From NCBI GenBank assembly GCA_001777015.1, contig MFCV01000020.1, positions 1 through 33,203 of the forward strand: a stretch of DNA of 33,203 nucleotides, given 5' to 3'. The stretch comes from Candidatus Daviesbacteria bacterium RIFCSPHIGHO2_02_FULL_36_13 (GTDB lineage: Bacteria > Patescibacteriota > Microgenomatia > Daviesbacterales > UBA10151). This document shows, piece after piece, positions 7,854 to 30,239 of the stretch (its first letter is position 1; each line of letters opens with the position of its first letter). The position numbers were made by a program, and so were the translations under genes. The notes under the pieces are model-generated. The model did not search any database and was not told where the DNA came from. It worked only from the letters and a program-made list of their open reading frames with translations.

Positions 7854-7895
7854 CTTCTTCTTTGGTAAAATTAGCTACATAAAATCAATCTTCCT

Positions 7896-9822: not shown

Positions 9823-10524
9823 ATGGATGAACTTGTAATTAAAGCAGCTCAAAATAACGCTGATTGGTGTGATGTTGTGTGTAGAACTCATGGAGTACCA
9901 GGAGAATTTTTAGAAAATGTATGGATTAACCAACATGAAGTTCCTGCTTATTACCCAAACGCAGTAACAATTAAACCTTTATCTAATAATGATGTTACTG
10001 ATGCTCTAAAAAAGATCTCTTTGGAAGCGTATGCAATAAAAGATAGTTTTAATGAATTAAATGAAGATGAAATAGGATGCAAAATTTTATTTGAAGCTGA
10101 ATGGATTTCTTACTCTCAAGATGAATCAAAACGTAAAAGTACAATTGATAACTGGACTATCATAAAAAATGATGAGGAATTAAAAAATTGGGAAAGGGTT
10201 TGGAATAATGCTAACCCAACGGATAAAAAAATCTTTTTACCAAATATTTTATCTTCCGAAGGCGTATTTTTCCTAGCCAAATATAAAGATAATCAGATAG
10301 TCGCGGGAGGAATTGTAAATATCTCTCACGATGTTGTTGGCTTATCAAATGTATTTACTAAAGGATTAGTTAATAGCAACATATATTCCGAGTTGGTTTC
10401 TTTTATTAAAGAAAAAATATCTACAATACCTATTGTTGGGTATGAAAAAGATAAAGAACTAGAATTAGCACATGAGGCAGGTTTTAAAACAATTGGAAAA
10501 TTAAAAGTTTTATTAAAGATATAA
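9823..10524 (+). CDS. Hypothetical protein with GNAT-like C-terminal region
   Basis: WCDVVCRTHGVPGEFLENVWINQHEVPAYYPNAVTI; FFLAKYKDNQIVAGGIVNIS; leaderless TATAAT 9811-9816. Confidence 0.55.
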   Translation: MDELVIKAAQNNADWCDVVCRTHGVPGEFLENVWINQHEVPAYYPNAVTIKPLSNNDVTDALKKISLEAYAIKDSFNELNEDEIGCKILFEAEWISYSQDESKRKSTIDNWTIIKNDEELKNWERVWNNANPTDKKIFLPNILSSEGVFFLAKYKDNQIVAGGIVNISHDVVGLSNVFTKGLVNSNIYSELVSFIKEKISTIPIVGYEKDKELELAHEAGFKTIGKLKVLLKI

Positions 10525-10546
10525 ATTTTTAGGTTATAATTTAATT

Positions 10547-11026
10547 ATGGCTGAAGGATCAGGTATAGAAATTCATCAATATCAATCTAGTGATTTAGAA
10601 GGGGTTAAAAATTTAAATTCCAAAGCAATAGAAGAATTTGGAGATTCTTTCAGAAGACCTACTTTTCCAGACCTAGATCAGATTGAAAATACTTACTTAA
10701 ATAATAATGGAGATTTTTTAGTAGCTACTAATGAAGGCAAGGTTATTGGCATGGGGGCCTTAATGAAGGTTTCTGATGATAAGGCCGAAGTTAAAAGAAT
10801 GAGAGTATCTCCCGATTCACAAAGACAAGGGTTAGGTAAGGCAATCTTAGATAGGTTAGAACAAAGAGCAAAAGAATTAGGATATAAAACACTTGAGTTA
10901 GATACATCCATTAACCAACCAGCAGCACAAGAATTTTATATGAAAAATGGTTATGTTGAGGTTAGAAGAGAGGGTCCAGAACAAGGTTGGCCTGTGGATA
11001 CCATTTTCTACGAAAAATCTCTTTAA
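10547..11026 (+). CDS. GNAT-family N-acetyltransferase
   Basis: VIGMGALMKVSDDKAEVKRMRVSPDSQRQGLGKAILDRLEQRAKELGYKTLELDTSINQPAAQEFYMKNGYVEV. Confidence 0.92.
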   Translation: MAEGSGIEIHQYQSSDLEGVKNLNSKAIEEFGDSFRRPTFPDLDQIENTYLNNNGDFLVATNEGKVIGMGALMKVSDDKAEVKRMRVSPDSQRQGLGKAILDRLEQRAKELGYKTLELDTSINQPAAQEFYMKNGYVEVRREGPEQGWPVDTIFYEKSL

Positions 11027-12864: not shown

Positions 12865-13483
12865 AAAGTGGTTTTAGATTTTCTGCTTTTAATGGTTGGG
12901 ATTTAATCTGGTCTGGATTATAGAAAGTATAAAATAATTCTAAAACTTCCAAAGAATCTAGAACTCTGGTTTTCATGCCTAGTTTTTCTAAACCCTTAAC
13001 AATAATATCTTGCCTAAGCTGTATCTGTTCTTTAATCAGTTCAAAGTCACTCTTTTTATCTAATACATCATAGGGAATAATTACATAAAACTTTCTTGAA
13101 AGGATTTTGTTACCTGAAACTAAATCAGATATAAATTCACAATAGTTTTGGATCTGATCCTTATAAACTTGGCTTTCTTCGTTCTCCTGCTTTTTGGTAA
13201 AGTCTTCCAAATACTTATCAATATCAACTTCCCTTACTCTGATAAGTATTTGAATATTGGCAGGAAGAGAATTTAGGAAGTTTTGAAAGTTATCTATAAT
13301 CTGATCTTTTTCTTCTTCTGATCTAAGTTCAAAATTAACAGCTGATGTTTCAATAATACTTCTGTACCTATTGCCGGGCAGTATCAGAATTCCCTCTTTT
13401 ACCTCCTTAATCCTAATCTGTTTTCTGGATGATGATTTTTTACCTCCGTTGGAAGAGTTAGTTTTTGACCGGCCAAATAGCAT
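12842..13483 (-). CDS. VirB4/TraC N-terminal-like domain encoded as a separate cistron
   Basis: LPGNRYRSIIETSAVNFELRSEEEKDQIIDNFQNFLNSLPANIQILIRVREVDIDKYL; overlaps start of the VirB4 ATPase ORF. Confidence 0.75.
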   Translation of the reverse strand: MLFGRSKTNSSNGGKKSSSRKQIRIKEVKEGILILPGNRYRSIIETSAVNFELRSEEEKDQIIDNFQNFLNSLPANIQILIRVREVDIDKYLEDFTKKQENEESQVYKDQIQNYCEFISDLVSGNKILSRKFYVIIPYDVLDKKSDFELIKEQIQLRQDIIVKGLEKLGMKTRVLDSLEVLELFYTFYNPDQIKSQPLKAENLKPLFEGAYVN

Positions 13484-13970
13484 CTACTGTACCTCCTTTG
13501 CCAAATTTTAAGTCTAATTTGCCTCTATGCAGTGCCAAAATCTTTTCCAGTTGTCCAAAGTCGGAAATTACACCATCAGCAGTTTTAGCCTTTATAGTAG
13601 CCTTCTCTTCTTGGATAGTTTTTTTCTTAATAAGTTGTATTTCAGGAAGATAAACTATGTCCCTAAGATACGAATCATTTTTATCAAAGACATATAATTT
13701 TGGTCTTATAAAATATCCAGATAAAAGTAAAATCCAGTTTAATAACACCCTGCCCTTTATTCTAAAAGAGAGGGTAAAACAGGAAAGAGTTGTAAATGTA
13801 ATCAGAGGAATTTTATAAAGGTTAAATTGTAGCTTTTCAGGTAAAACTGCAAAGATGGCTACCCCAATAAATAGAGCTGAGGCAATCAGAACAATTTGGG
13901 TCATGTTTAAATTAGCCACAATCTTATCCTCAACTGTGGTGATTTGTGCCGGAACTATAGTAGTCCTCAT
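13458..13970 (-). CDS. PrgI-family membrane protein (T4SS)
   Basis: TTVEDKIVANLNMTQIVLIASALFIGVAIFAVLP... two TM segments; position directly upstream of VirB4 genes. Confidence 0.75.
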   Translation of the reverse strand: MRTTIVPAQITTVEDKIVANLNMTQIVLIASALFIGVAIFAVLPEKLQFNLYKIPLITFTTLSCFTLSFRIKGRVLLNWILLLSGYFIRPKLYVFDKNDSYLRDIVYLPEIQLIKKKTIQEEKATIKAKTADGVISDFGQLEKILALHRGKLDLKFGKGGTVDAIWPVKN

Positions 13971-15271
13971 GCAGCCACCATCTTTCTACCTGCTTGTGTT
14001 TCTTTATCAGGAGAAGCCAGTTTCTTTTTCATGCTAGCTTCTCTGGATGAAGCAGATATGACATTCATAATCTGTCCTCCCACTTTTCTAATAACCATCT
14101 TGCCAGTGTTGTAGAAGATAAATTGCATCATAATTGATGAAGTTTTTAAAAGTGTTGTTAAAAGTCCAATTCCTATAAGGATTGATATTAAAGAATTAGT
14201 ACCGGTCTGCCCTGGAATTGTTAAGAAAGCTGAAGCCAGCTGAATAATAACTATGTGAACAAAGACAGAAAAAATAGCTACCAGATAGCTTTTAAATGCT
14301 ACCTCAGCAGTATCAGCAAACTTAGGAATTGCCCAAAGAAGGCAAATTAAAGGAGCAAGTACAGCTCCTAAAGCAATAGTGATAAGCCTGGTTATATAAA
14401 AAAGCAAAAGCACTATGGATAAGATTACAAATAGGATTATAAAAATTAAAGTTATTAAGGCCATACCTCCCAGACCAATACTAGCTGGATCAATAGCAGT
14501 ATTAATAATCCAGGCATTTTCTAACCCTCCTGTTACATTAAGGAGTGCTTTAACTAGAGTATTACAAAGCAAGACTAACCAATCTGCCAAAAAGATTGAC
14601 ATATTAGCTCCTAAAAAGGCAAGACCGATTCTGGGAAGGAGATGCTTAAACTCAATCTCTTCAAATCCAAAAGTAGTGGCAGACATAAAATGAAATCCCA
14701 AAGCCACAATGACAAAAAGGAATAAAGAATCAGCAATGGCTAAGATAATTGCCCAGTATTGAAAGATGACAGAGTTGGAAAGGATAGAAGGAGTGGTAGT
14801 TAAAAAGGTGATGATGGCATCAGTTAAAGGTTTAACAGCAGACTGGGATATATTTTGTAGAAAGCCTGCAACAGCATCAAGTAAAACTTGAGTTAAACCA
14901 TCTGACGGTTCAGCAGGTTCAATATTTGTTAGCTGAATCTGGGTTTGGGTAGTAGATGAGGTAGGAGTATTAAAGGCGTTTTGAAGTAAAGATGAAATAA
15001 CAGCAGCTCCGATAACTAAAGCCAAACCAATTAAGGCATTTCTGATAGTCAGTTTTGCATGATCTAGGGAATCAGGATTATTAGCTGAAGTGATATACCC
15101 ATAACCGCCTTTAACTAAAAAGAAAGTAGCAGCTAGTGTGGCAAAGACTAAAAGGGTATTTAAAGTTTGATTGGTAAAATTATTTACATCTGAATTGGTG
15201 GTAGCTGCAAAAACTGCGGAAGGAAAAAAGAAGGTTATAGAAATTAAAAATAAAGAAGCAATGAACTTCAT
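13967..15271 (-). CDS. VirB6/TrbL-like polytopic protein with an N-terminal pilin-like segment
   Basis: Signal-peptide start MKFIASLFLISITFFFPSAVFAATT; many TM helices; N-terminus aligns with adjacent VirB2-like pilin. Confidence 0.78.
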   Translation of the reverse strand: MKFIASLFLISITFFFPSAVFAATTNSDVNNFTNQTLNTLLVFATLAATFFLVKGGYGYITSANNPDSLDHAKLTIRNALIGLALVIGAAVISSLLQNAFNTPTSSTTQTQIQLTNIEPAEPSDGLTQVLLDAVAGFLQNISQSAVKPLTDAIITFLTTTPSILSNSVIFQYWAIILAIADSLFLFVIVALGFHFMSATTFGFEEIEFKHLLPRIGLAFLGANMSIFLADWLVLLCNTLVKALLNVTGGLENAWIINTAIDPASIGLGGMALITLIFIILFVILSIVLLLFYITRLITIALGAVLAPLICLLWAIPKFADTAEVAFKSYLVAIFSVFVHIVIIQLASAFLTIPGQTGTNSLISILIGIGLLTTLLKTSSIMMQFIFYNTGKMVIRKVGGQIMNVISASSREASMKKKLASPDKETQAGRKMVAA

Positions 15272-15314
15272 ATTTAGATAGACAGACTGGCAGAAAAACT
15301 TAGGCAGGAGAAAA

Positions 15315-15641
15315 TCAGCCACCAAAAGCAGTTTTGGCAGCAGATGAGACAATCTGCATAATGACGTAAGCTGCGATAACAATAACCAGACCAATCAAAG
15401 AGTTAGCTATAGTCCTTTTAGCTCCATCAAGATGTTCTGGATTATCATTTGCACCCATATACTTAAATCCTCCATATACTAAAAATCCAGCTGCAACAGA
15501 GCCAGCAAGAAATGTTAAGTAACTTACTATAGTTTTAATAAAGGATTCAACTTTACCTATATCAGCACTTTGTGCAAATACCGGAGAGGCAAATATTAAT
15601 GCGGTCAGTAATAATGAAGATGTAAAGATTACTTTTTTCAT
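15315..15641 (-). CDS. VirB2/TrbC-like T4SS pilin
   Basis: Signal peptide plus two TMs, GGFKYMGANDNPEHLDGAKRTIANSLIGLVIVIAAYVI; SD GGAGGTGAGGT before ATG. Confidence 0.85.
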   Translation of the reverse strand: MKKVIFTSSLLLTALIFASPVFAQSADIGKVESFIKTIVSYLTFLAGSVAAGFLVYGGFKYMGANDNPEHLDGAKRTIANSLIGLVIVIAAYVIMQIVSSAAKTAFGG

Positions 15642-15715
15642 ACCTCACCTCCAATCTTTTTAGGCAGAGGCAGAAAATCTTAAGCAGTAAATTTAAGATT
15701 TAGCAGTGTAGCGCG

Positions 15716-15744
15716 AATATAATCCTTCCAAAGAAAAATGTCAA
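15716..15744 (-). promoter_or_regulatory. Sigma70-type promoter for the T4SS operon
   Basis: Minus strand TTGACA(15744-15739)-17 nt-TATATT(15721-15716). Confidence 0.75.
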
Positions 15745-15793
15745 GGCTTGGTACACAAGTGTCATCTTCACGCACTTAACAAATAAGACAATG

Positions 15794-15823
15794 TTGACAA
15801 ATCCAGTTTAGACTACATATACT
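15794..15823 (+). promoter_or_regulatory. Sigma70-type promoter for leaderless ORF at 15833
   Basis: TTGACA 15794-15799, 18-nt spacer, TATACT 15818-15823; ATG at 15833. Confidence 0.72.
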
Positions 15824-15832
15824 AAGCTCAGT

Positions 15833-16431
15833 ATGTCTGAACCAGTAGATAGTTCTAAAAACGAAGCGCCGAGAGAGAGAGAGAGAGAGAGAGTAACGAG
15901 GACAAGAGAAAAAGAGTCTGGGAACCCACTGTTAGAGCTCATCAAGAAGGTTTAGACCTTACCCCTGAACAACAGAGAGCAATAGAACTACGAACTACAA
16001 GTCTTTCATTTGTGAACGCCTTAAATCAGCTTGTTGAAGACCCTGATATTAAAGAGGATGCAGCAAAAGAGGCAGAAGTAACAGCACAGTATTGGCAGGC
16101 ATTGCTTAAGTTACAAGACTTAGGTATTGAAGAAAATATGCATGTTGGTAAACCACAAGAATTCTTTGATGATCCTAAAAATGTTGCAGAATATGTAGCT
16201 GGACAATTAATTGGAATTGAAGGAGATAAAATTCCTAATGTCAGACAAGCCTTGTATCAAGTCAAAGAACATTCAGAAGACCCACTCAAAATAACTGAAG
16301 AAACTAGTATGTATACAATACCTACTGAAAATATATCTCCAACATTAAAAAATTGGATGGTACTCCGAAGTATGGTTAATATAGCTCATATGTTTCTTGC
16401 TTCAGATTTAGATAGGCCTTCTAAAACTTAA
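15833..16431 (+). pseudogene. Hypothetical gene with frame interrupted at a (GA)11 tract (phase-variable gene, pseudogene or sequencing indel)
   Basis: ATG frame MSEPVDSSKNEAPRERERER goes out of frame (stop 15953-15955); removing one GA unit joins it to the downstream ORF SNEDKRKRVWEPTVRAHQEGLDLTPEQQRAIELRTTSLSFVNALNQ... Confidence 0.7.
15871..15892 (+). repeat. (GA)11 dinucleotide microsatellite
   Basis: gagagagagagagagagagaga read directly. Confidence 0.97.
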
Positions 16432-16456
16432 TTCTCCTCTCTTATTAAGAGAACAT

Positions 16457-16485
16457 TTTTACCTTCCTTCGGAAGGTCGTTATTT
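16457..16485. terminator. Hairpin ACCTTCC-TTC-GGAAGGT, candidate terminator; copy 1 of an identical 29-bp repeat
   Basis: ttttaccttccttcggaaggtcgttattt downstream of the ORF ending 16431. Confidence 0.6.
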
Positions 16486-16510
16486 TTCAAAACTTTGTTA
16501 TACTCTTGTT

Positions 16511-17395
16511 ATGAATTTAAACGAATTTAGTAAAAATAAAAATGAGGTCTTAAAAGTTATGTTTAAAGCTAGCGAAATGGCTTGGCAAAAAGCGATTAAG
16601 CCTAGAATGAAAAAAATCCGAGAGGATTCTGTTGATAAAAGTTCTATAAAAGGCGGGGGGACAGACTTTTTCACTGAGGCTGATACAGAAAGTGAAAGAG
16701 TAGTTAAAGAAGAATTAATTAAAAGATTTGGTAAGGATGTTTTTAGAATATTCGGAGAAGAAGAAAATGGTTATATAGGGAATTTAGAATCAGATATAAC
16801 AATCCGTATAGACCCAATTGATGGCACAGAAGCATTTAAATTTGGGAAGCCCAACTGGAGTATTCTGATTGGAGTATATAGTGGTAGGGATGATCAAGAG
16901 AAACAATTGTTAGCTACAATCTATTATCCTGAATATTACAACGAAATGCTCTACTTCCTTGAAGGCAGCGGTATATTTCTCCAAAATATGTCAACTGGAG
17001 AAAAACAGGAAATAACTAACATAGAGGATCAGGATAGTTTAGAAAATATTATTGTGGCATATTGGAAAAATTCAAATCTTCAAAAAAGAGGTAGGATAGA
17101 TGAGATCTTAGATGAATTAGAAAAAAATGGGGCAAGAGTCAGGAGTATCTCGCCTACTGAAGTTAAAGAAGCTCTTATAACCCATGGTAAAAGAGCCATG
17201 ATTATGGATGGTGATTATAATCAAGTCGACTTTATTTCATATTCACTACTAATAAAACTTGGCTATAAGGTTTATGACTGGAATGGATCTGAATATAATA
17301 TAAATGATCCAGGCTTAACTGATAAAAAACTTGTAATTATTCCTCCAGGAAAAGCAGGTAAGCAAATATTAGAGATTGTTAATCAAAATAAATAA
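16511..17395 (+). CDS. Inositol monophosphatase / 3'(2'),5'-bisphosphate nucleotidase (CysQ-like) family protein
   Basis: DFFTEADTESERVV, IFGEEENG, IRIDPIDGTEAFKFG, MDGDYNQVDFISYSLLIKLGYKVYDWNG. Confidence 0.8.
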   Translation: MNLNEFSKNKNEVLKVMFKASEMAWQKAIKPRMKKIREDSVDKSSIKGGGTDFFTEADTESERVVKEELIKRFGKDVFRIFGEEENGYIGNLESDITIRIDPIDGTEAFKFGKPNWSILIGVYSGRDDQEKQLLATIYYPEYYNEMLYFLEGSGIFLQNMSTGEKQEITNIEDQDSLENIIVAYWKNSNLQKRGRIDEILDELEKNGARVRSISPTEVKEALITHGKRAMIMDGDYNQVDFISYSLLIKLGYKVYDWNGSEYNINDPGLTDKKLVIIPPGKAGKQILEIVNQNK

Positions 17396-17397
17396 AG

Positions 17398-17426
17398 TTT
17401 TACCTTCCTTCGGAAGGTCGTTATTT
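17398..17426. terminator. Hairpin ACCTTCC-TTC-GGAAGGT, candidate terminator; copy 2 of the 29-bp repeat
   Basis: Identical to 16457-16485; directly after the ORF ending 17395. Confidence 0.6.
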
Positions 17427-17517
17427 GAATATTAATCAAGATAGTGGAAGATGTTTACCTACACTCGCACTATTAGTACCATTTGCAATTTGTCCCCAAA
17501 TTAACCATACTTAAATC

Positions 17518-17871
17518 ATGGATCCAGAAGCTTATAGGAAGAAACTTGAGTTGGATATTCTTACAATTATTGAGGAGAAATTAAGAAATGGACAGATGGA
17601 TGCTGAAAGAGCCAAAGCTATTGCTAGAATGGTTTTAGATAAACTTCATCCTCCCCTTACTTTAGAGCAAATCCATCAAATTGCCCCAACGCTTGATGAC
17701 CATTTTGCAGAACTTGCAAAAGCAGTCATGCCCATAATTCATGACCATGAAGAAGAAGTTAAAAAAGTTGTTTCAGAACATGCTTCCAAACTCATCAAAT
17801 CTGGTAAGATTGATGAGGCCTTATCAATTCTGAAACAAGCAACACAAAAAGGAATAGAAGTTAAAACATAA
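17518..17871 (+). CDS. Hypothetical helical protein, 117 aa
   Basis: ORF whose stop overlaps the next ATG (ATAATGG). Confidence 0.6.
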   Translation: MDPEAYRKKLELDILTIIEEKLRNGQMDAERAKAIARMVLDKLHPPLTLEQIHQIAPTLDDHFAELAKAVMPIIHDHEEEVKKVVSEHASKLIKSGKIDEALSILKQATQKGIEVKT

Positions 17872-19670
17872 TGGAAATAACCGCAGGAATAAAACCAACC
17901 CTAGAGAATACTGGTTCTGAAAGTCCAAAAGGACATATAAAAGCCCGTACAGAGAAACCGGATACCTATCCCGAAAGAGCACCTGTATCAGATGGAGTAT
18001 CATGGGAGACAATTGATAAAAGTAAATATCACCCACCATATTTTGTAGATAATAGGGTTTTAGCAAACGATCGAACAAAAGACCCCAAAAATAAAAAATT
18101 GTGGGCAGATCCGGAAGATATTTCGCTACTTGAAGACAAAAAATTCCTAAGCTACGAGGGAGAGGTACGGCTTGATGAGAAAGGTAGGCCACTTAATCCA
18201 AGAGGTCCAACAGGAATTGAGGGAAGAGGAGAACTAGGAAGATGGGGAGCAAATAAAGCTGCGGATCCAATAGTTTTCCGTACAAATGAAGACGGTTTTA
18301 TGGAAATGATTACTATAAAGCGAAAAGACACTGGAGAGTGGGCTATCCCTGGAGGAATGGTGGATGAAGGAGAACGGGTGACTGCTACCCTAAAGAGAGA
18401 ATTAGGTGAAGAGACTTCTGCAAATCTAGACTTTGAGGATGCCCAACCGATTTATCAAGGGTATGTGGATGATCCACGGAATACCGATAACGCATGGATG
18501 GAAACTGATGCTTTCTATCTCTATTTGCCAGAAGGTACAAAGACTAATCTTCAAGCAGGAGACGATGCTTCAGATTCGAAGTGGATGGTGTTAAACGAAG
18601 AATCAGTTAATTCGTTATACGCCAGTCATGCGGATCTTGTTCAAAGAGCTATAAGATCCTGGCAAGAGAAAACAGGTTTTGTTGTTGATAAAGAAGGAAA
18701 TATCAAAAAATCAGCAGAGGGAGAAATAGTCAGTCAAATCACGGAAGCTCGCGCGAACGGAAACAATTCAAATCCTGATGATGTATTGGAAGAAATTGTC
18801 TCATCTGGTGCAGAAATATTATCAGCATCAGAGCCTACTATTGAAAGCTCCTCTGAACAATTACAAAGCTATCTCGTAACAGAGGCTAAAAGTGCGTTGG
18901 GACAACCCACTTTTAACACAAGGAATGAGCTCATGGGAAAAGCAGTTGGTCTTGAATCCTCCTTATTAGCAGCAAAGTCTATTGGTAAGCCAGAAGTAGC
19001 TGATAAATTAAGAGGTGTTTTCACCCAAGCTGCTGAAGAATCAGGAAAAACTTTTGCAGGTGCATTTGATGAAACTGGTAAAAAAATGGAAGATAAAAAT
19101 GGTGAATACGATACTGCGATGAAAGCCGCCGGAGAAGTTGCACTCCAACATCTTCCGGATGCGTTGAAAGTAGCTGGTATTAATGTTGACATTCAAAAAG
19201 TCTTAAGAGATGCAACATTCAATGATGTTTTAAGAGTAACAGCAAAAGAATTGGGCCAACCTGAACCCGTGGGTATAGATCCAGATCAGGTTAGACAAAC
19301 CCTACATAGCATGGTACCAAATAATGAATATGGTGTAGAACATATTGATACGATGCCATTTGATGAAAATACCCCATTATCAGAACAGGAACAAAAAGCA
19401 TTAGATGTAGCTGTAAGACTCGCAAATGCAACATGGAAGGTGGGACAAGTTCATAGAGCAGCTTGGGAAGGCAATGATGGTAGAATCAATCCTGATGTCA
19501 GAGAGGTGTTTAATCCATTTGATTTATTAAAGAAAACTCAATTTGACAGAGTTATACAGGAAGGACGACAACCTCAAGAAGCATTAACAAGAGTGGGTTT
19601 TGAAATTTATAAAGATGTAGCTCAACTTAAACCACTTGTTGCTCAACCCCAACCAGGACCAGCTCGTTAA
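17871..19670 (+). CDS. NUDT9-like ADP-ribose pyrophosphatase (NUDIX) domain fused to a ~330-aa unknown C-terminal region
   Basis: PRGPTGIEGRGELGRWGANKAADPIVFR, GEWAIPGGMVDEGERVTATLKRELGEET, GYVDDPRNTDNAWMETDAFYLY, AGDDASDSKWM, LYASHADLV: the NUDT9 signature set. Confidence 0.88.
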   Translation: MEITAGIKPTLENTGSESPKGHIKARTEKPDTYPERAPVSDGVSWETIDKSKYHPPYFVDNRVLANDRTKDPKNKKLWADPEDISLLEDKKFLSYEGEVRLDEKGRPLNPRGPTGIEGRGELGRWGANKAADPIVFRTNEDGFMEMITIKRKDTGEWAIPGGMVDEGERVTATLKRELGEETSANLDFEDAQPIYQGYVDDPRNTDNAWMETDAFYLYLPEGTKTNLQAGDDASDSKWMVLNEESVNSLYASHADLVQRAIRSWQEKTGFVVDKEGNIKKSAEGEIVSQITEARANGNNSNPDDVLEEIVSSGAEILSASEPTIESSSEQLQSYLVTEAKSALGQPTFNTRNELMGKAVGLESSLLAAKSIGKPEVADKLRGVFTQAAEESGKTFAGAFDETGKKMEDKNGEYDTAMKAAGEVALQHLPDALKVAGINVDIQKVLRDATFNDVLRVTAKELGQPEPVGIDPDQVRQTLHSMVPNNEYGVEHIDTMPFDENTPLSEQEQKALDVAVRLANATWKVGQVHRAAWEGNDGRINPDVREVFNPFDLLKKTQFDRVIQEGRQPQEALTRVGFEIYKDVAQLKPLVAQPQPGPAR

Positions 19671-19723
19671 TCCGAACCTCTGAATTGATTGACTCCTCAA
19701 ATCAAAAATGAAACAATGTTGAT

Positions 19724-22249
19724 ATGGATTCTGAAGCAGCAAGTGCTGGTACGGCTAAAATAGCAGCTGCAGAAGCTGCAAAAGGGACTGAGCCAAAGAC
19801 CCAGGAAGCAGGCTCTCCTCACTTACAACCTCAAAAGGATGCTGACGGAACGTTGCCTCCTGCTCCCAATAGTGAGACACCAAAAACTACACAAGCAAGA
19901 TTAATCGAAATTGCACAAGTTGCAGATGCTAATCCTAGAGAACAACAAGGAGTTCCTAATAGTGAACAAGAGCTACAATTAATTGACACTCAACTCGGAC
20001 AGTCAATTCATAATAGCGAAATAGCAACTATTGCATCAAGATATTTGAGAGATAATGAGAAAACAGATATCCAGACCTTATTGCGTAATAAAGATACAAG
20101 ACCTCTTGTTATTGACCAGCTAGGAAAAATCTCTGATCGTGCATATCGTTCTTTAGTAAGCTCATTGGTAGAAGGCCCCGAAGAAATCAATGCTATTGGA
20201 GGTGTACAGGCAAGCGTTGACGTATTAAGTCGGGAGATGATGACTAGGGGTTCTGCAATTTTTGAAAGAGGAAAATTTAACTTACCGAATGATCCAGACT
20301 ATTGGGTAGATGAAACACGTTTTATAGACACAAGAAAAACCAGTGGTGATAGTAGATGGTTGGTGTGGGATGTTAATAATCCTGAGCATAGAGCAGCAGC
20401 AGAATCAATTCTTGCAGAAGCAAGAGGATTAGAAGATGGGTTGGGAACCTTTCTAGATCAAATTAGACAAAGAGCTGGTTTGGCAGAAGGAGCATTTGTA
20501 AATATTTCCCACAGGACTAAAGGAGTAGAAAGCTTACTTAATAAAACTGGCAAGTTTAGAGAAACTGAGTGGGGAAAAGATGCGACTATTGCAGATGCAG
20601 TTGATCTACTTGGAGGAAGGATTGTTGTGCAAGATCTTACTTCTTTAGAAAAAATAATGACAACACTTGAATCAACCGCCGAAGGTACTCCAGGAGTTCA
20701 AATACTCAGGAAAGAGAATAAATTTATTGCAAATCATGAAAAACCTGATCCATATAGAGCCATCCAATATATTGTTACTATCCCAGGTGAAGGAGGAAAA
20801 CTACATACCTTTGAGTTGCAGCTTAAGACATTTTCTTCAATGGTAGCTTCAGATTTGTTTCATAATGCTGTTTATAAACCGGATGTATTAAATTTACCGG
20901 CAGAACTACAGCAAGTTGTTAGAGAGTATAACTGGGAAAGTGATGAGCGAGAAATGATGGATTATCTAGATGTAAAAACCGGTGTTACAGCAGAACTAAC
21001 TCCTGATCAGCAAATCGAAAAAGCAATTTCTGAACTCGATTATAATGCTTTTTATGATTTGGTATTGAGCAAGGTTGATCCTGGTAAACCCTTAGACGAA
21101 GCAGCCAGACAAAGGTTGCAACTCTTCCATCAAAAAGAAGTAGCAAAGTTTCAAGGATTACAAGATAGAGATGAATCTGCTGTATTAGAATTAGCGGGTG
21201 CTGCCCATGATAGTTATTATCAAAAAGCTGCAAAGGATTTAGTGGAAAATCCAAAATCGGATCAACTAGGAAATAGTATTCCCGAAGCAGCTTTACAATA
21301 TCTTAGTCCTGAAGCACAGGCAAAATATAAGGCAAGGTATGAGACATTTAATGGTAGGAATAACAAGCTTTCTGTAGAGGACTTACAGTTGTATAAACTT
21401 ACAGATGAGCAACTAACTCAATTCCTGACTGCTGCCGGTAAGGATTTATCCACTGATGGCACAAAAGTAAGCGCTTTAGTTGAAAAAGTGAAACAATTTA
21501 GGGGTGAAGATGAGGTTTCAAAAGCAGAACGCCAAAAAATGAATGTAATGAATCTATATCACGCACCATTTGAACAATTAGTCAGATTAACACAAGAGAG
21601 CTCACCTGATGCTATTCAAGATCCTCAAGTTAGAGAACTTTGGAAACAGACTCTAATATCAAGCCAAATCAAAGCCATAGCTACATCCTCTATTCTAACT
21701 GAGGTGGGAGGGTATGATAGCGTGGGAAATTTAAGAGATTTAAGTAGAGAAGTTATTCAAGGCAGCGGATATTCACAAAGAGAAATGTTAACTTTCCTAT
21801 TTTTCACATCTGCTGATAGATCTAGTTCAGAGTTTGCAAATACGTCCTACCAAGAGTTTGCTACATCGGAACAAACAGCTTGGGCAAGAGATTTTGATAG
21901 GACAATGGATAGAGCCATACTGACTAAATTAACTGCTATACAGCTTCAATCCATTGACCAAGCTATGGCGGGTGAACCAAGTGCCGTTTATATGGCGAGA
22001 TATCAGAAAGCTAGGTATGAACTTATGAATAAATATATACGCTCTATGGTAGCAAATCCCTATTTAGCAGATCGGGTTTCTCCTTCTATCACTCAAAGAA
22101 GTAGAGAAGAGGTTGGTTTGCTACTCGAAGGAAGTGAAGAATCCCTGGAACTTGCCGCAAAAATAAAAGATCCAGCAGCATTTCAAGAATTTTCAACTTT
22201 TATAACTACAGAAGCTGGAGTACCTAATATTGTTCTACAAAGGAGTTAA
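19724..22249 (+). CDS. 841-aa protein with embedded RelA/SpoT-like synthetase domain
   Basis: ISHRTKGVESLLNKTGKF, IADAVDLLGGRIVVQDLTSLEKIM, PYRAIQYIVTIPGEGGKLHTFELQLKT; remaining regions unassigned. Confidence 0.75.
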   Translation: MDSEAASAGTAKIAAAEAAKGTEPKTQEAGSPHLQPQKDADGTLPPAPNSETPKTTQARLIEIAQVADANPREQQGVPNSEQELQLIDTQLGQSIHNSEIATIASRYLRDNEKTDIQTLLRNKDTRPLVIDQLGKISDRAYRSLVSSLVEGPEEINAIGGVQASVDVLSREMMTRGSAIFERGKFNLPNDPDYWVDETRFIDTRKTSGDSRWLVWDVNNPEHRAAAESILAEARGLEDGLGTFLDQIRQRAGLAEGAFVNISHRTKGVESLLNKTGKFRETEWGKDATIADAVDLLGGRIVVQDLTSLEKIMTTLESTAEGTPGVQILRKENKFIANHEKPDPYRAIQYIVTIPGEGGKLHTFELQLKTFSSMVASDLFHNAVYKPDVLNLPAELQQVVREYNWESDEREMMDYLDVKTGVTAELTPDQQIEKAISELDYNAFYDLVLSKVDPGKPLDEAARQRLQLFHQKEVAKFQGLQDRDESAVLELAGAAHDSYYQKAAKDLVENPKSDQLGNSIPEAALQYLSPEAQAKYKARYETFNGRNNKLSVEDLQLYKLTDEQLTQFLTAAGKDLSTDGTKVSALVEKVKQFRGEDEVSKAERQKMNVMNLYHAPFEQLVRLTQESSPDAIQDPQVRELWKQTLISSQIKAIATSSILTEVGGYDSVGNLRDLSREVIQGSGYSQREMLTFLFFTSADRSSSEFANTSYQEFATSEQTAWARDFDRTMDRAILTKLTAIQLQSIDQAMAGEPSAVYMARYQKARYELMNKYIRSMVANPYLADRVSPSITQRSREEVGLLLEGSEESLELAAKIKDPAAFQEFSTFITTEAGVPNIVLQRS

Positions 22250-22260
22250 GATCTAAATTA

Positions 22261-22920
22261 CTAAGCTGCTCTAACACTTTCTAAAGCAGCATCCAATTTA
22301 TCTTGCAATGAGGAATCAATACTTGCTAGTTCAATAAAATATTTTTCTGTCTCTACTAAATACCTATCACTAAATTCTTTAGTTCCTACATTATTAGGTG
22401 ATGTCGTAAGCAAAAGTATTGAATACAAATTATCAATTCGATCGTAGACTTTAATTCTCCTAATATAATTTGGGGAGGAGGGTGATTTTAAAACATTAAA
22501 ATATTCATCCGTATCTTTTTTATTTCCAGTACTTGCAATGGTTTTTGATAAAGCTGCTACTCCTTGAGAAATTTCATTTCCAAAATTGGTATTTAAATCA
22601 TCTGTAGTTAATGTAGGACAATCTTCTAGAGTGTCGTGCATAACTGCAACAGCAACTGCCTCTAAGGGTTGACTGCCTTCTTCAAGGAGACGTAGAGAGA
22701 CTCTTAAGGGATGTAGGATATAAGGTGTTCCCTCTTTCCTCTTTTGTCCAGTGTGTGCTGACTCAGCAGTTTCAATTGCTCTTGTAACCAATCCAAGAGA
22801 ATCTTGAGCTGCAACCCTATGTAATAAGATACCTTTAAGAATGTCAGGATCTTTAATTAACATAAATTCTGGATTGGTTGAGCTCATTTCTAAGTAATGA
22901 TCAGATATAGTACGTTCCAT
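22261..22920 (-). CDS. Stand-alone HD-domain (p)ppGpp/ppApp hydrolase-like protein (SAH/MESH1/SpoT-HD type)
   Basis: ETAESAHTGQKRKEGTPYILHPLRVSLRLLEEG...AVAVAVMHDTLEDCPTLTTDDLNTNFGNEISQGVAALSK...IRRIKVYDRIDNL. Confidence 0.88.
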   Translation of the reverse strand: MERTISDHYLEMSSTNPEFMLIKDPDILKGILLHRVAAQDSLGLVTRAIETAESAHTGQKRKEGTPYILHPLRVSLRLLEEGSQPLEAVAVAVMHDTLEDCPTLTTDDLNTNFGNEISQGVAALSKTIASTGNKKDTDEYFNVLKSPSSPNYIRRIKVYDRIDNLYSILLLTTSPNNVGTKEFSDRYLVETEKYFIELASIDSSLQDKLDAALESVRAA

Positions 22921-22975
22921 TAGGTGATATTATACTAAATTGCATAATAAGAGGCTCATGAGACTTATTTTTAAA

Positions 22976-23278
22976 TTAAAAGAAAGGGATTAGGAAATAG
23001 AAGATTATCATAACTAAATTTAAGACTAAACAAGCTATTGCCAGTTTCAAGTATTTATCCTTGCTTTGTAATTGTGCAATCCCTGAAAATAAATTTATTA
23101 ACCCGTAACTAACAAGAGCAACGGAGATAACATAGGTCATGGGAGTTTGCAATTTTAATATTTGACTGTTTGTTTGGGTAAGGGATAATCTTGCTGCATT
23201 CAATAAAAATAGACCAGACTGTAATGATATTACAATTCCAAACAATATATTAAAAATTCCAATTAATTTATTCTTCAT
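22976..23278 (-). CDS. Small membrane protein, three predicted TM segments
   Basis: Three hydrophobic stretches in 100 aa. Confidence 0.55.
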   Translation of the reverse strand: MKNKLIGIFNILFGIVISLQSGLFLLNAARLSLTQTNSQILKLQTPMTYVISVALVSYGLINLFSGIAQLQSKDKYLKLAIACLVLNLVMIIFYFLIPFF

Positions 23279-23326
23279 AGTAATTAAATACTAGCATAAT
23301 AAATTCCAATTGCTATTAATGAAGAT

Positions 23327-23383
23327 TCATTTAAGCTCTCCCCTTATTGGGTCATTCGGAGATTGATCAACAGGTTCAGACAT
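23327..23383 (-). CDS. Possible 18-aa peptide MSEPVDQSPNDPIRGELK
   Basis: ATG two nt after stop of upstream gene; N-terminus resembles MSEPVDSSKNEAPRERE at 15833. Confidence 0.3.
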   Translation of the reverse strand: MSEPVDQSPNDPIRGELK

Positions 23384-23385
23384 AT

Positions 23386-23871
23386 CTATTTAGTTGGTTG
23401 AGCAGGAGGTGGGGTTGGTGGTAAAGGTTCTGCGGGTGTGTGATTTACTCCCTCTTGATGTTCCATGCCCATTCTAAAAGCGAGTAATTGATCGTGAGCA
23501 AAAGCTAATGCTATCCGAGACTCTTCTGTTGGATTTGTATGATTAACTTGTAAAACTCTTCTAAAATTATTAACATTTGCCATTAGACCGTTAAAGACAG
23601 GAAAATCTCCTTCTTCCACAATTAGACTTCCAGAAGGTTGATTCTCTGGATGAATGCCCACTTCTGCTCTTCTGGCATCTCCCATTGTTTCTTGGCGTAA
23701 TCTTACTTTGCCTGAATTGAATCTTGGAACCGGAATATTCATTTCTGTTAGCTCATTTATTGTATCAATGTAAATCTTGTAATCCTCTTTACTATTTAAA
23801 GGTATCTCTTTTGATGGAGCTTCACCAACTTCCATATGATGAAAAAATCTAGCATCGGGTACTTCAGCCAT
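23386..23871 (-). CDS. Hypothetical protein with Pro-rich C-terminal tail
   Basis: Likely start MAEVPDARFF; tail EPLPPTPPPAQPTK. Confidence 0.6.
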   Translation of the reverse strand: MAEVPDARFFHHMEVGEAPSKEIPLNSKEDYKIYIDTINELTEMNIPVPRFNSGKVRLRQETMGDARRAEVGIHPENQPSGSLIVEEGDFPVFNGLMANVNNFRRVLQVNHTNPTEESRIALAFAHDQLLAFRMGMEHQEGVNHTPAEPLPPTPPPAQPTK

Positions 23872-24025
23872 ATTAACTACTATAATAATACTTACTTTTG
23901 GGATAGTCAACCGCGTATGTTTTCACTCTAAACATATGGAATACTTAAATCCTATTTTTAATTCCTCATGGCAGTAGAGTTTAACCCTCCTTCACAATCT
24001 GACCCCATAGGAATTTTACAAATTA

Positions 24026-24592
24026 CTATTTAGTTGGAGTGGGAATAGGGGTAGGAGCTGTTGCAGCAGCAGCTTGTGGAGGTTGTGTAGGTCTGTAAGT
24101 TTCATCAAAAGATTTTTTGTCAATAATATAGATATCATCCAAGTTACCTGGTACTTCTGTTACAACATCTACTGTGGTAGCTACCATACAATCGGGTTCA
24201 CCATATTGGTATCCACCCCATGCTGGTACAATAGCTATTTTTTCTGCGTGTGGGTTAGTTACAGCTCTAATTTTTCCAAAGGCTTCAAAAGTACCGGGTT
24301 TCTCTTCAACTGGTCTGTATCTTGCTTGAAACTTGTTAGCGGCTAAAACATATTGCTCACCTTGGGGGCCAGTAATAACATAATCACCAGGATTTGCAGT
24401 ATTCCTTGTTTCTTCTTTTCCTTGAATGTGAGTTACAACTTCTTCTGTGGCTTCAGCAACCCTTGCAGAAACTTCACCAAACTTTGTATAAACAGGAGCT
24501 TCAGTTAAAGTTTCTCCCATACCTTCAGCTTTTAGGTCATGATAAGCAAAACCTGGTTCTACGTCCATTGGTGGTTGTCCTCCTGCTTCCAT
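24026..24592 (-). CDS. Hypothetical protein with Pro/Ala-rich C-terminal tail
   Basis: TTGACA-17-TTAACT-6-ATG; tail PTQPPQAAAATAPTPIPTPTK; phosphoribosyl-unrelated, no family recognised. Confidence 0.62.
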   Translation of the reverse strand: MEAGGQPPMDVEPGFAYHDLKAEGMGETLTEAPVYTKFGEVSARVAEATEEVVTHIQGKEETRNTANPGDYVITGPQGEQYVLAANKFQARYRPVEEKPGTFEAFGKIRAVTNPHAEKIAIVPAWGGYQYGEPDCMVATTVDVVTEVPGNLDDIYIIDKKSFDETYRPTQPPQAAAATAPTPIPTPTK

Positions 24593-24681
24593 ATCTTCAG
24601 TTAACTCTATTCTTACAGGATTGTCAAGACAGCTATTTTAGGGGATTGACAGTTATGTTAAAGAAATAGTTAAATTAAAAT

Positions 24682-25194
24682 ATGTCAGAGGGTACAGATG
24701 GTATAGAGCAATCAGAACAAACTCAAGAGGTTAAGTTATCCCCAGAAGAATTAAAAGAAAATGCCCAAACATTGTTAGGTTCATACCTAAATCATGAAAC
24801 CGTAAAAAGTGCAAAATTTCAAGAGACCGTAGACTCAACAAATAAAGATAGAGTTATTAAACGTAGTACTCTTTACGGAGGAACAGGTTTAGACCGTGAT
24901 CAAAAAATAACCATTGTAGAGATTAAGGGTCAGCCAGTACAGGTAACGCATGAAACTTCAGCTGGAGGAGTAATGCCTTCTAGGAAAGAGATCCACATAA
25001 CCTCGGATCCTGACGGAAAAAATAGTATTCAAGCATTTGATTTTGGTCCAGGGGGTAGTTATCGTGGATCGCGTTATATTGAGCCCAGAATAGAAAAACA
25101 AGGGATAGATAGTAATATAGCAGTAGGAATGGCTGAAAATATGCTGGCGAAAATACCTCAACCCGTGAAAGTAGCCGCCCCTGTTGCTGCCTAA
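24682..25194 (+). CDS. Hypothetical protein, 170 aa
   Basis: ORF divergent from 24592(-), TTGACA upstream. Confidence 0.6.
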   Translation: MSEGTDGIEQSEQTQEVKLSPEELKENAQTLLGSYLNHETVKSAKFQETVDSTNKDRVIKRSTLYGGTGLDRDQKITIVEIKGQPVQVTHETSAGGVMPSRKEIHITSDPDGKNSIQAFDFGPGGSYRGSRYIEPRIEKQGIDSNIAVGMAENMLAKIPQPVKVAAPVAA

Positions 25195-25223
25195 TTAAAT
25201 TTCATGAATAAGTACATATTTTA

Positions 25224-25754
25224 CTACTCTTTAGCCTGTTTTTTAGGCTTGCCTAAAATGTCAAAACGTACGATTCCAGTAACTACTGATAGGAAAATAA
25301 ATATTTCTGTAGCCATGCCAGCATAGGAACCAACAATAAGGTTATATATAAACCATAAAGGTCTTGGAGCTAACATAATAAATCTGATGGCTCTTGGGTT
25401 TGTTTGCCAAACCGCAATTGTTCCGAATATTTGAGCTAAAACAGGGAAAGAATCTACCCAGGATTTTGAAGTAACTGCTCCTGCAATAATAAAAAGAGAG
25501 ATAAAAAGGTATGGCCAAAATTTTTGCTGTGCCCACAATCTAGTTTCTTTTTTGAAAGCTACAAACACCATCCCAGCTTCAATTAAGTTCATCAATGCAC
25601 CTATCCATGCACCAAGTAAGCTGTAATGGACTACAAATAATAAGAGACCAATAAGCATAAAAGACAATAAGGCAAGCCTTTTATTTTTTTGGAACGAGAA
25701 GATAACAAAAAGAAGAGCTACAAAGCCTATACCCTGAATAACTACTTGGTCCAC
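25224..25754 (-). CDS. YgjV-like inner-membrane protein
   Basis: GFVALLFVIFSFQKNKRL...VVHYSLLGAWIGALMNLIEAG...IFGTIAVWQTNPRAIRFIMLAPRPLWFIYNLIVGSYAGMATEIFIFLSVVTGIVRFD; GTG start 6 nt after TATAGT. Confidence 0.72.
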   Translation of the reverse strand: MDQVVIQGIGFVALLFVIFSFQKNKRLALLSFMLIGLLLFVVHYSLLGAWIGALMNLIEAGMVFVAFKKETRLWAQQKFWPYLFISLFIIAGAVTSKSWVDSFPVLAQIFGTIAVWQTNPRAIRFIMLAPRPLWFIYNLIVGSYAGMATEIFIFLSVVTGIVRFDILGKPKKQAKE

Positions 25755-25799
25755 AAATTTACTATAGCAGAATCATAATTAGAATGTACTTCTTTCTAA

Positions 25800-25914
25800 A
25801 GGGGTTGCACCCCTCAGATTACAAGGGTCTAGATAAACGAGGTCGTTGCCTCGCCCTTGTAATCCTCACCCCGCTTAAAAACTTCAGGTATTGGTAGCAG
25901 GCAGGCTGCTACCA
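25800..25914 (+). other. Highly structured intergenic region: candidate cis-regulatory leader RNA/ncRNA or oriT
   Basis: Three hairpins: AGGGGT-TGC-ACCCCT (25800-25814); GATTACAAGGG(25817-25827)...CCCTTGTAATC(25854-25864) enclosing CGAGG-TCGTTG-CCTCG (25838-25853); TGGTAGCAG-GCAGG-CTGCTACCA (25892-25914). Confidence 0.65.
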
Positions 25915-25959
25915 GAAAAAATATTTTCTAGGTAAAGGCCAGGAAAGGAGGTGAACTAA

Positions 25960-26268
25960 ATGCAACTTTTGACAAAAGAATTAACAACAAAGTTACCCTT
26001 TTTATATACGCAGGAAGATGAAGATGACCCCATTGTTATCTGTAAATTCTTTGCTGTCTGGACTAACTGGACATGGTACGCCATAGAATTTGACGGAAAA
26101 GATACCTTCTTTGGTTATGTTATTGGTCATGAGAATGAGTTAGGATATTTCACTCTTTCCGAGCTACAAGGATTAAAAGGTCCTATGGGTTTAGGTGTTG
26201 AAAGGGATATGTACTTTAGACCGTGCAAGCTTTCAGAAATTAAAAGGCTACACGAAGGACAGTATTAA
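25960..26268 (+). CDS. DUF2958-like mobile-element protein
   Basis: LLTKELTTKLPFLYTQEDEDDPIVICKFFAVWTNWTWYAIEFDGKDTFFGYVIGHENELGYFTLSELQGLKGPMGLGVERDMYFRP; SD aaaggaggtgaac. Confidence 0.82.
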   Translation: MQLLTKELTTKLPFLYTQEDEDDPIVICKFFAVWTNWTWYAIEFDGKDTFFGYVIGHENELGYFTLSELQGLKGPMGLGVERDMYFRPCKLSEIKRLHEGQY

Positions 26269-26275
26269 TATTTAG

Positions 26276-26303
26276 ACCTGCCGCTGTTTCCCCGGCGGCA
26301 GGT
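26276..26303. terminator. Bidirectional hairpin terminator between convergent genes
   Basis: ACCTGCCG-ctgtttccccgg-CGGCAGGT stem between stops at 26268(+) and 26304(-). Confidence 0.65.
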
Positions 26304-27083
26304 TTACTCTTCTGGTCTAATTTCTTCCCAATTAACTTGACCTGTCCTTATTTCCCTTTTAGTAGTTAAAAATAGGTCAATATCATCTCCTATATTTTTA
26401 GTTAAAATTGCCTGGCTGAACATTTTAATATGGTATTTCCTCTTATCTGAGGGGAGAACAAACAGAATGGTAGGAAAAGGAGCATTATTAGTATTTGCCT
26501 GCCAATCACCACCTTTGCAGTAGTTAAGATAATAAGTAACTCTTTCTGTTATGACCTTGTGAGGGGTATAATCGTCATAGTAGTCTAGAAAATATCTGTT
26601 AGTATCAGCACCATCTATTTCCTCAATATAGGCAGTTGGCAATGGGTCAGGAAAATATTCACAACTGCCAAGTTCTTGTTTAGTAAAAAAGTTTAATACC
26701 TGCCCCTTTGTTTTCCTGGATAGAAAGAAGAGGAATATATCTGCAATAAATAAATTTCTTTTGATAAATGGGACCTCTTTTGTTTTTTCTTTATATAACC
26801 TGTCCAAAAAGTCCTCATCAATATTACTATCTTCTTTGCTGCTTTCTTCTTTTAAGATGTACCTTGCCTTTGTATCCAGACAATAAATATAACCATCTGC
26901 AATTTCTTTATCCTCTATATAAGTTATAAACTTTTTGCTGACTAAATCATTTAATGCAATTTGTAATCTTTTTTTATCTTTATGTTCAAATAATTTTATT
27001 AGTTGTTTAATAAGTAAGTATCTGAATTGATAGAGATAGAAAATAATATCATCTTGTTTTTTAGAATGAGGTGGTATTTCCAT
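26304..27083 (-). CDS. Replication-relaxation (Replic_Relax/MobC-like) wHTH family protein
   Basis: KKQDDIIFYLYQFRYLLIKQLIKLFEHKDKKRLQIALNDLVSKKFITYIEDKE...YCLDTKARYILKEE; next to coupling ATPase. Confidence 0.68.
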   Translation of the reverse strand: MEIPPHSKKQDDIIFYLYQFRYLLIKQLIKLFEHKDKKRLQIALNDLVSKKFITYIEDKEIADGYIYCLDTKARYILKEESSKEDSNIDEDFLDRLYKEKTKEVPFIKRNLFIADIFLFFLSRKTKGQVLNFFTKQELGSCEYFPDPLPTAYIEEIDGADTNRYFLDYYDDYTPHKVITERVTYYLNYCKGGDWQANTNNAPFPTILFVLPSDKRKYHIKMFSQAILTKNIGDDIDLFLTTKREIRTGQVNWEEIRPEE

Positions 27084-27266
27084 GTAAGTATTTTTAATAG
27101 TTCGTTTTAGGTTTTTATTTTAAGATTAGGGTAGGAGTTTTAATAGACTAAATAAGAGGGCAGATTAAACTAATCTAGTAGTATATATAAAGAAAGGATG
27201 TGTTTTTGTCAACTTTAGCTTCATTTTTAGTCAATTTTAGCCCTAACCCCTAGGGCATAATTATTA

Positions 27267-30053: not shown

Positions 30054-30089
30054 ATTACCTTTAAATTGGCAGGTAGGCAGATTAGCCCG

Positions 30090-30117
30090 ATTATATACCC
30101 TGAACATAAAATTGCAA
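30090..30117 (-). promoter_or_regulatory. Candidate promoter for coupling-protein gene
   Basis: Minus strand TTGCAA (30117-30112)-16 nt-TATAAT (30095-30090). Confidence 0.6.
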
Positions 30118-30156
30118 CAGGGCAAATTAGGCTTAATCTTCTTACAATTCTCTATC

Positions 30157-30197
30157 TTGACAACTGACCATATATGGTTATATACTAGTCATATATG
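30157..30197 (+). promoter_or_regulatory. Promoter for integrase operon with two overlapping palindromic sites
   Basis: TTGACA 30157-30162, 18 nt, TATACT 30181-30186; CATATATG palindromes at 30169-30176 and 30190-30197. Confidence 0.65.
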
Positions 30198-30239
30198 ATT
30201 AGTTTAGCCTCAATTTTAACCATTTTCAGGACTTAAACT

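What the first reader, a model, noticed from the sequence alone, without database searches (positions are those of the whole stretch)
17871..22920. Candidate undescribed nucleotide-signalling/conflict module: NUDT9-like ADPR pyrophosphatase, 841-aa RelA/SpoT-like protein, and stand-alone HD alarmone hydrolase
Three consecutive genes carry domains acting on nucleotide signals. Two are on the + strand, and the HD gene is convergent with only 11 nt between stops. A synthetase-like protein beside a small HD hydrolase resembles toxSAS/ATfaRel-type toxin-antitoxin pairs, where the hydrolase neutralises the alarmone. Here the synthetase domain sits inside an unusually large protein, and the preceding gene encodes an ADP-ribose hydrolase fusion. 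Domain identities rest on motifs; the joint function is inference.
Basis: partly seen in the sequence, partly recalled or inferred. Interest (0 to 1): 0.78.

Follow-up and report, generated by a model that had tools for sequence, protein, structure and literature searches.

The report
Alarmone enzyme pair on mobile element
A mobile DNA element in a tiny uncultured bacterium that has no other detectable alarmone enzymes carries an unusually large alarmone-synthetase-like protein next to its matching hydrolase, probably a toxin and its off-switch, plus an unrelated ADP-ribose-cutting enzyme of the human NUDT9 type.

Summary
The three genes are real and their domains check out. The 599-aa protein carries a full NUDT9-type ADP-ribose pyrophosphatase domain with an intact Nudix box. 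The 841-aa protein holds an internal RelA/SpoT (small alarmone synthetase type) domain with all but one ATP-donor-site residue kept. The convergent 219-aa protein is a stand-alone alarmone-hydrolase-type HD enzyme. They are not a three-gene signalling system. They are cargo of a ~31.9-kb conjugative-type element (VirB4, VirD4, VirB6, pilin, large serine recombinase) inserted between two tRNA-Leu genes of a Patescibacteria genome that has no other detectable RelA/SpoT or HD gene. A related element carries unrelated cargo at that position. Synthetase plus hydrolase adjacency recurs in 2 of 7 other unusual CPR synthetase loci. One of these is a 1253-aa synthetase-domain protein whose neighbouring HD protein is the closest relative found of the window's. 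NUDT9 homologues were never found beside either; elsewhere they occur alone or inside giant phage proteins, some with ADP-ribosyltransferases. Best reading: a toxSAS-like toxin with an alarmone-hydrolase antidote on a conjugative-type element, and an independent ADP-ribose hydrolase as a second conflict gene. No activity has been shown. New variant of a known kind.

The parts
17871..19670 (+). 599-aa protein: NUDT9-type ADP-ribose pyrophosphatase domain (residues about 21-260, 17931-18650) plus an uncharacterised ~330-aa C-terminal region ending in a Pro-rich tail
19724..22249 (+). 841-aa protein with an internal RelA/SpoT synthetase domain; the rest predicted mostly helical (low-confidence model), with no relatives found
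20510..20878 (+). RelA/SpoT synthetase domain (residues 263-385); R264, K266, S270, K274, D294, R299, Y344, E364, Q366 kept, His of the G-loop replaced by Q348
   Evidence: residue comparison with FaRel2 as given in PMC11782079
22261..22920 (-). 219-aa stand-alone HD alarmone hydrolase (SAH type), convergent, 11 nt from the synthetase stop; HD signature H70, H95-D96, E99-D100, D160, N164 present
17518..17871 (+). 117-aa small ORF whose stop overlaps the NUDT9 start by one base (same operon); no known domain
242..32114 (.). approximate extent of the inserted conjugative-type element between tRNA-Leu(gag) 157-241 and tRNA-Leu(cag) 32115-32198; left edge uncertain by up to about 0.7 kb
   Evidence: empty site in L225, two tRNAs 2 nt apart next to yvcK
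11023..15641 (-). T4SS genes: VirB4 11023-12864, TraC-N-like 12842-13483, PrgI 13458-13970, TrbL/VirB6 13967-15394, TrbC/VirB2 pilin 15315-15641
   Evidence: 49-83% identical set in L215
26304..30125 (-). coupling protein TraG/VirD4 (27267-30125) and Replic_Relax-like protein (26304-27083, below Pfam cut-off)
30596..32134 (+). large serine recombinase, C-terminus overlapping the 3' end of tRNA-Leu(cag)

Best explanation
Cargo of a conjugative-type element. The 841-aa protein is most likely a large toxSAS-like enzyme that uses ATP to pyrophosphorylate a purine nucleotide or a tRNA 3' end and so stops growth. The convergent 219-aa HD enzyme removes the product and acts as its antidote, making a synthetase-hydrolase toxin-antitoxin or defence pair that the element keeps for itself. 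The NUDT9-type protein upstream is a separate enzyme that cleaves ADP-ribose or a related signal, most likely another conflict gene of the element (protection against NAD/ADP-ribose-based defence). Shown: domains, catalytic residues, element context, recurrence of synthetase-HD adjacency. Inferred: all activities, toxicity, neutralisation, and what triggers the large protein.
For: Synthetase residues of the ATP donor site are kept apart from FaRel2 R77 -> K, as is the G-loop Tyr. Fold nearest to small alarmone synthetases RelP/RelQ, with CapRel among the matches. HD signature intact. The own genome (96% complete) has no other RelA_SpoT match and no other HD of this kind. Synthetase-HD adjacency recurs in L130 (1253-aa protein with the synthetase domain at its C-terminus, HD about 310 nt downstream; that HD is the closest found to the window's, 37%, 5e-22, next best 2.5e-16) and L175 (167-aa SAS convergent with 185-aa SAH, 20 nt). 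The known FaRel operon has an SAH antitoxin that neutralises toxSAS products (PMC11782079). Element context with CBASS and restriction-modification genes, a tRNA-Leu empty site and variable cargo in L215. NUDT9 domain joined to ADP-ribosyltransferase and head protease in phage proteins.
Against: The G-loop His is Gln, and Asn-Gly is Asp-Pro, so substrate or activity may differ. No homologue of the 841-aa protein outside the synthetase domain was found. 5 of 7 other unusual synthetase loci have no HD neighbour. The genes are convergent, not an operon, unlike most TA pairs. The protein is far larger than any toxSAS known to me. No activity data.
Confidence: 0.5

Rival explanations
1. Polyvalent-type effectors: the 841-aa and 599-aa proteins travel through the element's T4SS with the DNA and act in the recipient, the synthetase shifting its nucleotide state and the NUDT9 enzyme destroying ADP-ribose-based immune signals; the HD gene protects the resident cell.
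For: RelA/SpoT domains are known in polyvalent proteins of phages (PMC5512222). Foldseek finds close viral matches inside 1000-1300-aa phage proteins, and one in a 981-aa model named ART-PolyVal-like. NUDT9 sits in giant phage proteins with head protease and, in two, ADP-ribosyltransferase. A Streptomyces T4SS-linked synthetase is reported (PMC12691689). Pro-rich C-terminal tails in 3 cargo proteins of the element (3 of 9 against 6 of 256 control ORFs).
Against: No typical polyvalent domains found in either protein. The tail signal is weak and absent from the 841-aa protein. PMC5512222 lists RelA/SpoT only in phage-type, not conjugative, polyvalent proteins.
Confidence: 0.2
2. Anti-phage sensor like CapRel: the long helical regions of the 841-aa protein sense infection and switch on the synthetase; the HD enzyme limits leak or aids recovery.
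For: CapRel among fold matches; the element also carries CBASS and restriction-modification genes; the nearest relative L129 joins two cyclic-nucleotide-binding domains to the same synthetase domain, so a sensor-plus-synthetase design exists.
Against: No CapRel-type antitoxin/sensor domain detected; PADLOC only gives a weak match to candidate PDC-S33 (6e-6).
Confidence: 0.15
3. Split stringent-response set: the element supplies a host that lacks RSH enzymes with a regulated (p)ppGpp synthetase and a hydrolase, for ordinary regulation of growth or transfer.
For: No other RelA_SpoT or HD gene detected in this genome; only 8 of 45 genomes of the family carry a RelA_SpoT match.
Against: No regulatory ACT/TGS domains; catalytic domain is SAS-like and very divergent; G-loop His lost.
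Confidence: 0.08
4. Unlinked cargo: three accessory genes that happen to lie together in the element's variable region.
For: A relative of the element carries glycosyltransferase, P-type ATPase and iron permease there instead; NUDT9 is never next to the other two elsewhere; 5 of 7 other synthetase loci lack an HD neighbour.
Against: Synthetase-HD adjacency in L130 and L175, and the special similarity of L130's HD, are unlikely by chance (roughly 0.002 for 2 of 7 if 1% is expected; the 1% is my estimate). Likely right for NUDT9, unlikely for the pair.
Confidence: 0.15

Closest known systems
toxSAS toxin-antitoxin modules (FaRel/ATfaRel, FaRel2/ATfaRel2, PhRel, CapRel)
   Same: ATP-donor-site residues, SAS-type fold, and, for FaRel, a small alarmone hydrolase as one of the antitoxins
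   Different: 841 aa instead of roughly 200-400; synthetase domain internal; G-loop His replaced by Gln; hydrolase gene convergent; no YXXY-type antitoxin found
Small alarmone synthetases RelP/RelQ (SAS2/SAS1)
   Same: Best structural matches and the H-x3-YK motif after the catalytic Glu
   Different: Only about 17-20% identity; embedded in a long protein; on a mobile element
Small alarmone hydrolases (MESH1/SAH) and RSH HD domain
   Same: Complete HD signature, 219 aa, stand-alone
   Different: Paired with a synthetase gene on a mobile element; closest to the HD protein of L130
NUDT9 / TRPM2 NUDT9H ADP-ribose pyrophosphatase
   Same: Domain alignable over its length including the N-terminal region, intact RExxEE
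   Different: Bacterial, with a 330-aa unknown extension, on a conjugative-type element
Polyvalent proteins of phages and conjugative elements
   Same: Large proteins with nucleotide-acting domains on transfer elements
   Different: No second known domain in either protein; RelA/SpoT so far reported only in phage-type ones (PMC5512222)

Membership tests
toxSAS | SAS-type synthetase domain with intact ATP donor site | tested here: met
   R264, K266, S270, K274, D294, R299, Y344, E364, Q366; FaRel2 R77 is K; fold
toxSAS | G-loop with conserved Tyr and His | tested here: inconclusive
   Tyr kept, His replaced by Gln; other unusual CPR synthetases also vary here
toxSAS | Encoded beside an antitoxin or immunity gene | tested here: met
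   Convergent HD gene 11 nt away; adjacency recurs in L130 and L175; that it is an antitoxin is inferred
toxSAS | Toxic; makes (p)ppApp or pyrophosphorylates tRNA | not testable with these tools
   needs expression and nucleotide analysis
toxSAS | Small protein (about 200-400 aa) | tested here: not met
   841 aa, single uninterrupted frame; so 'toxSAS-like', not filed as a member
Small alarmone hydrolase (SAH) | Stand-alone HD domain with H..HD..ED..D metal and catalytic residues | tested here: met
Small alarmone hydrolase (SAH) | Hydrolyses (p)ppGpp/(p)ppApp | not testable with these tools
   biochemistry needed
NUDT9 ADP-ribose pyrophosphatase | Full-length NUDT9 domain including the region before the Nudix fold | tested here: met
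   residues 21-259 against 1q33, E=5e-43
NUDT9 ADP-ribose pyrophosphatase | Intact Nudix box (RExxEE) | tested here: met
NUDT9 ADP-ribose pyrophosphatase | ADP-ribose hydrolysis | not testable with these tools
   biochemistry needed
Polyvalent proteins | Two or more conflict-related domains in one polypeptide | tested here: not met
   One recognisable domain in each protein
Integrative conjugative element | Integrase, T4SS with VirB4 and coupling protein, defined insertion site | tested here: met
Integrative conjugative element | Relaxase | tested here: inconclusive
   Only a sub-threshold Replic_Relax match; hence 'conjugative-type'

The most novel reading that the evidence does not exclude
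A conjugative element of ultrasmall bacteria uses a large alarmone-synthetase protein, sent or switched on during transfer, together with a resident hydrolase and a NUDT9-type ADP-ribose hydrolase, as a coordinated nucleotide-signal weapon and shield in hosts that have no stringent response of their own.
Probability: 0.12. Interest if true: 0.82.

Novelty: new variant of a known kind. Interest (0 to 1): 0.5.

Why it matters
Patescibacteria mobile elements and their weapons are little known. Here a conjugative-type element carries what seems to be the only alarmone chemistry of its host, in an architecture (large synthetase-domain protein plus separate hydrolase) that recurs in a distant CPR genome and that the polyvalent-protein survey had not seen in conjugative elements. 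It gives a testable case of alarmone enzymes as element weapons or guards in cells without a stringent response. It also shows that NUDT9, known as the ligand-binding module of the TRPM2 channel, is a recurrent and partly conflict-linked domain in bacteria and phages.

Tried and rejected
Full-length search with the 841-aa protein found no relative in 185 related genomes, genome contigs, IMG/VR or phage records, so neighbourhood tests had to use the synthetase domain alone. Single-sequence AlphaFold2 of the 841-aa protein was uninformative (pLDDT 39). Alignment-based scans of viral contigs for the synthetase and HD families found nothing. NUDT9 had no match in the phage records and only 36-45% identical actinobacterial plasmid homologues. 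L131 (G468) was a false lead: a fibronectin-like surface-type protein without a synthetase domain (by eye). L129's neighbour has an HD-like motif by eye but no Pfam match, so it was not counted as an HD partner. The idea that the T4SS is only the housekeeping one of Patescibacteria was rejected: the genome has a second coupling protein on contig C23, and the window set sits with a recombinase between two tRNAs that are adjacent in a relative. No 20-nt direct repeat marks the element ends, as expected for a large serine recombinase with a short crossover site.

Full report
Observation. The 599-aa protein matches human NUDT9 over residues 21-259 (E=5e-43) and the NUDT9H domains of TRPM2 channels, and keeps the catalytic Nudix box. 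Its last 330 residues match nothing. The 841-aa protein has a Pfam RelA_SpoT domain at residues 263-385 (E=1e-8, above cut-off). The 219-aa protein is an RSH-type HD hydrolase. The 599-aa gene overlaps a 117-aa ORF by one base and is followed after 53 nt by the 841-aa gene, so these three + strand genes look like one operon; the HD gene converges on it.

Catalytic state. Aligned with CPR Rel proteins and small synthetases, the window domain keeps the five columns invariant in 49 sequences (K266, K274, D294, E364, Q366) and R264, R299, Y344. These correspond to FaRel2 ATP-site residues (R64, K66, S70, K74, D90, R95, E145, Q147) and the G-loop Y128 listed in PMC11782079; FaRel2 R77 is a Lys here, and the G-loop His is a Gln. 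The H-x3-YK motif after the catalytic Glu is that of small alarmone synthetases rather than long RSH enzymes. AlphaFold2 with this alignment gives pLDDT 80.5 and pTM 0.78; the best PDB matches are RelP and RelQ, followed by RSH and CapRel. The alignment contained Rel proteins, so the model is supporting evidence, not independent proof; the Pfam match alone is significant. The HD protein keeps H70, H95-D96, E99-D100, D160 and N164, the residues that in MESH1 (own knowledge) bind metal and act in catalysis.

Context. The window is a whole contig of a genome of 963,675 bases (96% complete). It holds VirB4, PrgI, VirB6/TrbL, VirB2-type pilin, a TraG/VirD4 coupling protein and a large serine recombinase, plus a CBASS pair, an EcoRI-type methylase and a restriction enzyme. 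In relative G036 the genes tRNA-Leu(gag) and tRNA-Leu(cag) lie 2 nt apart beside yvcK; in the window the same two tRNAs are separated by about 31.9 kb, with yvcK beside the cag gene, so the element lies between them. The recombinase reading frame runs into the 3' end of tRNA-Leu(cag). Genome G012 has the same element family (VirB4 83%, recombinase 55% identical), again near yvcK, but with glycosyltransferase, PQ-loop, P-type ATPase and iron-permease genes in place of the window's cargo. The own genome has a second coupling protein elsewhere, so the window T4SS is not the only one. A relaxase was not firmly identified.

Host. No other RelA_SpoT match and no other such HD gene was found in this genome; only 8 of 45 genomes of the family have any RelA_SpoT domain. 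The element therefore seems to bring the host's only alarmone enzymes; the genome is 96% complete, so a missed gene cannot be excluded.

Is it a module? The full 841-aa protein has no relative in the collections searched. With the synthetase domain as query, a few unusual CPR relatives appear. L129 has two cyclic-nucleotide-binding domains and then the domain (38% identity). L130 is a 1253-aa protein with the domain at its C-terminus, followed by a 91-aa ORF and a 204-aa HD protein; its domain is found with the window sequence as query but falls below Pfam's threshold. L175 is a 167-aa synthetase convergent with a 185-aa HD protein at 20 nt. L129, L171, L172, L234 and L235 have no recognised HD neighbour. 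Thus 2 of 7 other loci show the pair; if 1% adjacency is expected by chance the probability is about 0.002 (the 1% is my estimate). L130's HD is the nearest relative of the window HD among the stand-alone and neighbouring HD proteins compared by blastp (37%, 5e-22; next best 2.5e-16). The pair is therefore a plausible functional unit. The NUDT9 gene is not part of it by this test: none of 25 NUDT9 loci from bacteria and viral contigs has a synthetase or HD gene in its flanks.

NUDT9 elsewhere. The closest homologue is a stand-alone 263-aa protein in a Shapirobacteria contig (54%, L092), which also shares the window's PLD nuclease gene (56%). In viral contigs the domain lies in proteins of 983-1520 aa with head maturation protease and, in two, ADP-ribosyltransferase (L112-L114), and inside frames of 2144 and at least 5576 aa (L116, L115). 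This fits the view that Nudix enzymes of phages counter ADP-ribose-type signals (PMC9503650).

Mechanism. Most likely: the large synthetase protein blocks growth through a pyrophosphorylated product; the HD enzyme removes it; the element benefits through maintenance, defence or competition. In the FaRel operon an SAH neutralises toxSAS products (PMC11782079). The NUDT9 enzyme separately removes ADP-ribose or a relative. Only the sequence features and the genomic pattern are shown; activities are inferred. Rival readings (transferred effector, CapRel-like sensor, split stringent response, unlinked cargo) are listed with refuting tests.

Novelty. Each domain is known; a RelA/SpoT domain in a large protein of a conjugative-type element with a separate hydrolase is, as far as the papers read show, not described. 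[quoted passage not shown] Hence a new variant of a known kind, not a new class, and not an undescribed three-enzyme module.

Noticed in passing
6140-7713 +: Two-gene CBASS-like pair (CD-NTase and Cap15-type 2TM effector) carried by the element.
   Followed up: partly
3911-6074 +: EcoRI-type adenine methylase followed by a GmrSD-N/HNH protein that PADLOC scores as a type II restriction enzyme (3e-135).
   Followed up: partly
16457-16485 and 17398-17426: Identical 29-bp copies of a terminator-like hairpin flank an inositol-monophosphatase-family gene (16511-17395), as if that gene were an inserted cassette.
   Followed up: partly
C-termini of ORFs ending at 19670 (+), 23386 (-) and 24026 (-): Pro/Ala-rich tails in three cargo proteins (3 of 9 cargo ORFs against 6 of 256 control ORFs of the genome); could be a T4SS signal or just linker-like sequence.
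   Followed up: partly
L104:4620-11216: Candidatus Omnitrophus magneticus: one 2199-aa frame joins two nicotinate phosphoribosyltransferase regions, an isochorismatase-type domain, NUDT9-type Nudix, CN_hydrolase and NAD synthase, apparently an NAD salvage pathway in one protein.
   Followed up: no
L129:3-2687: CPR protein joining two cyclic-nucleotide-binding domains to a RelA/SpoT synthetase domain.
   Followed up: partly
L112, L113: Viral contigs with head maturation protease, NUDT9 domain and ADP-ribosyltransferase in one protein.
   Followed up: partly
157-241 and 32115-32198: The tRNA-Leu gag/cag pair beside yvcK looks like an insertion hot spot: G040 (L217), G025 (L226) and G020 (L227) also have extra DNA between the two tRNAs.
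   Followed up: partly
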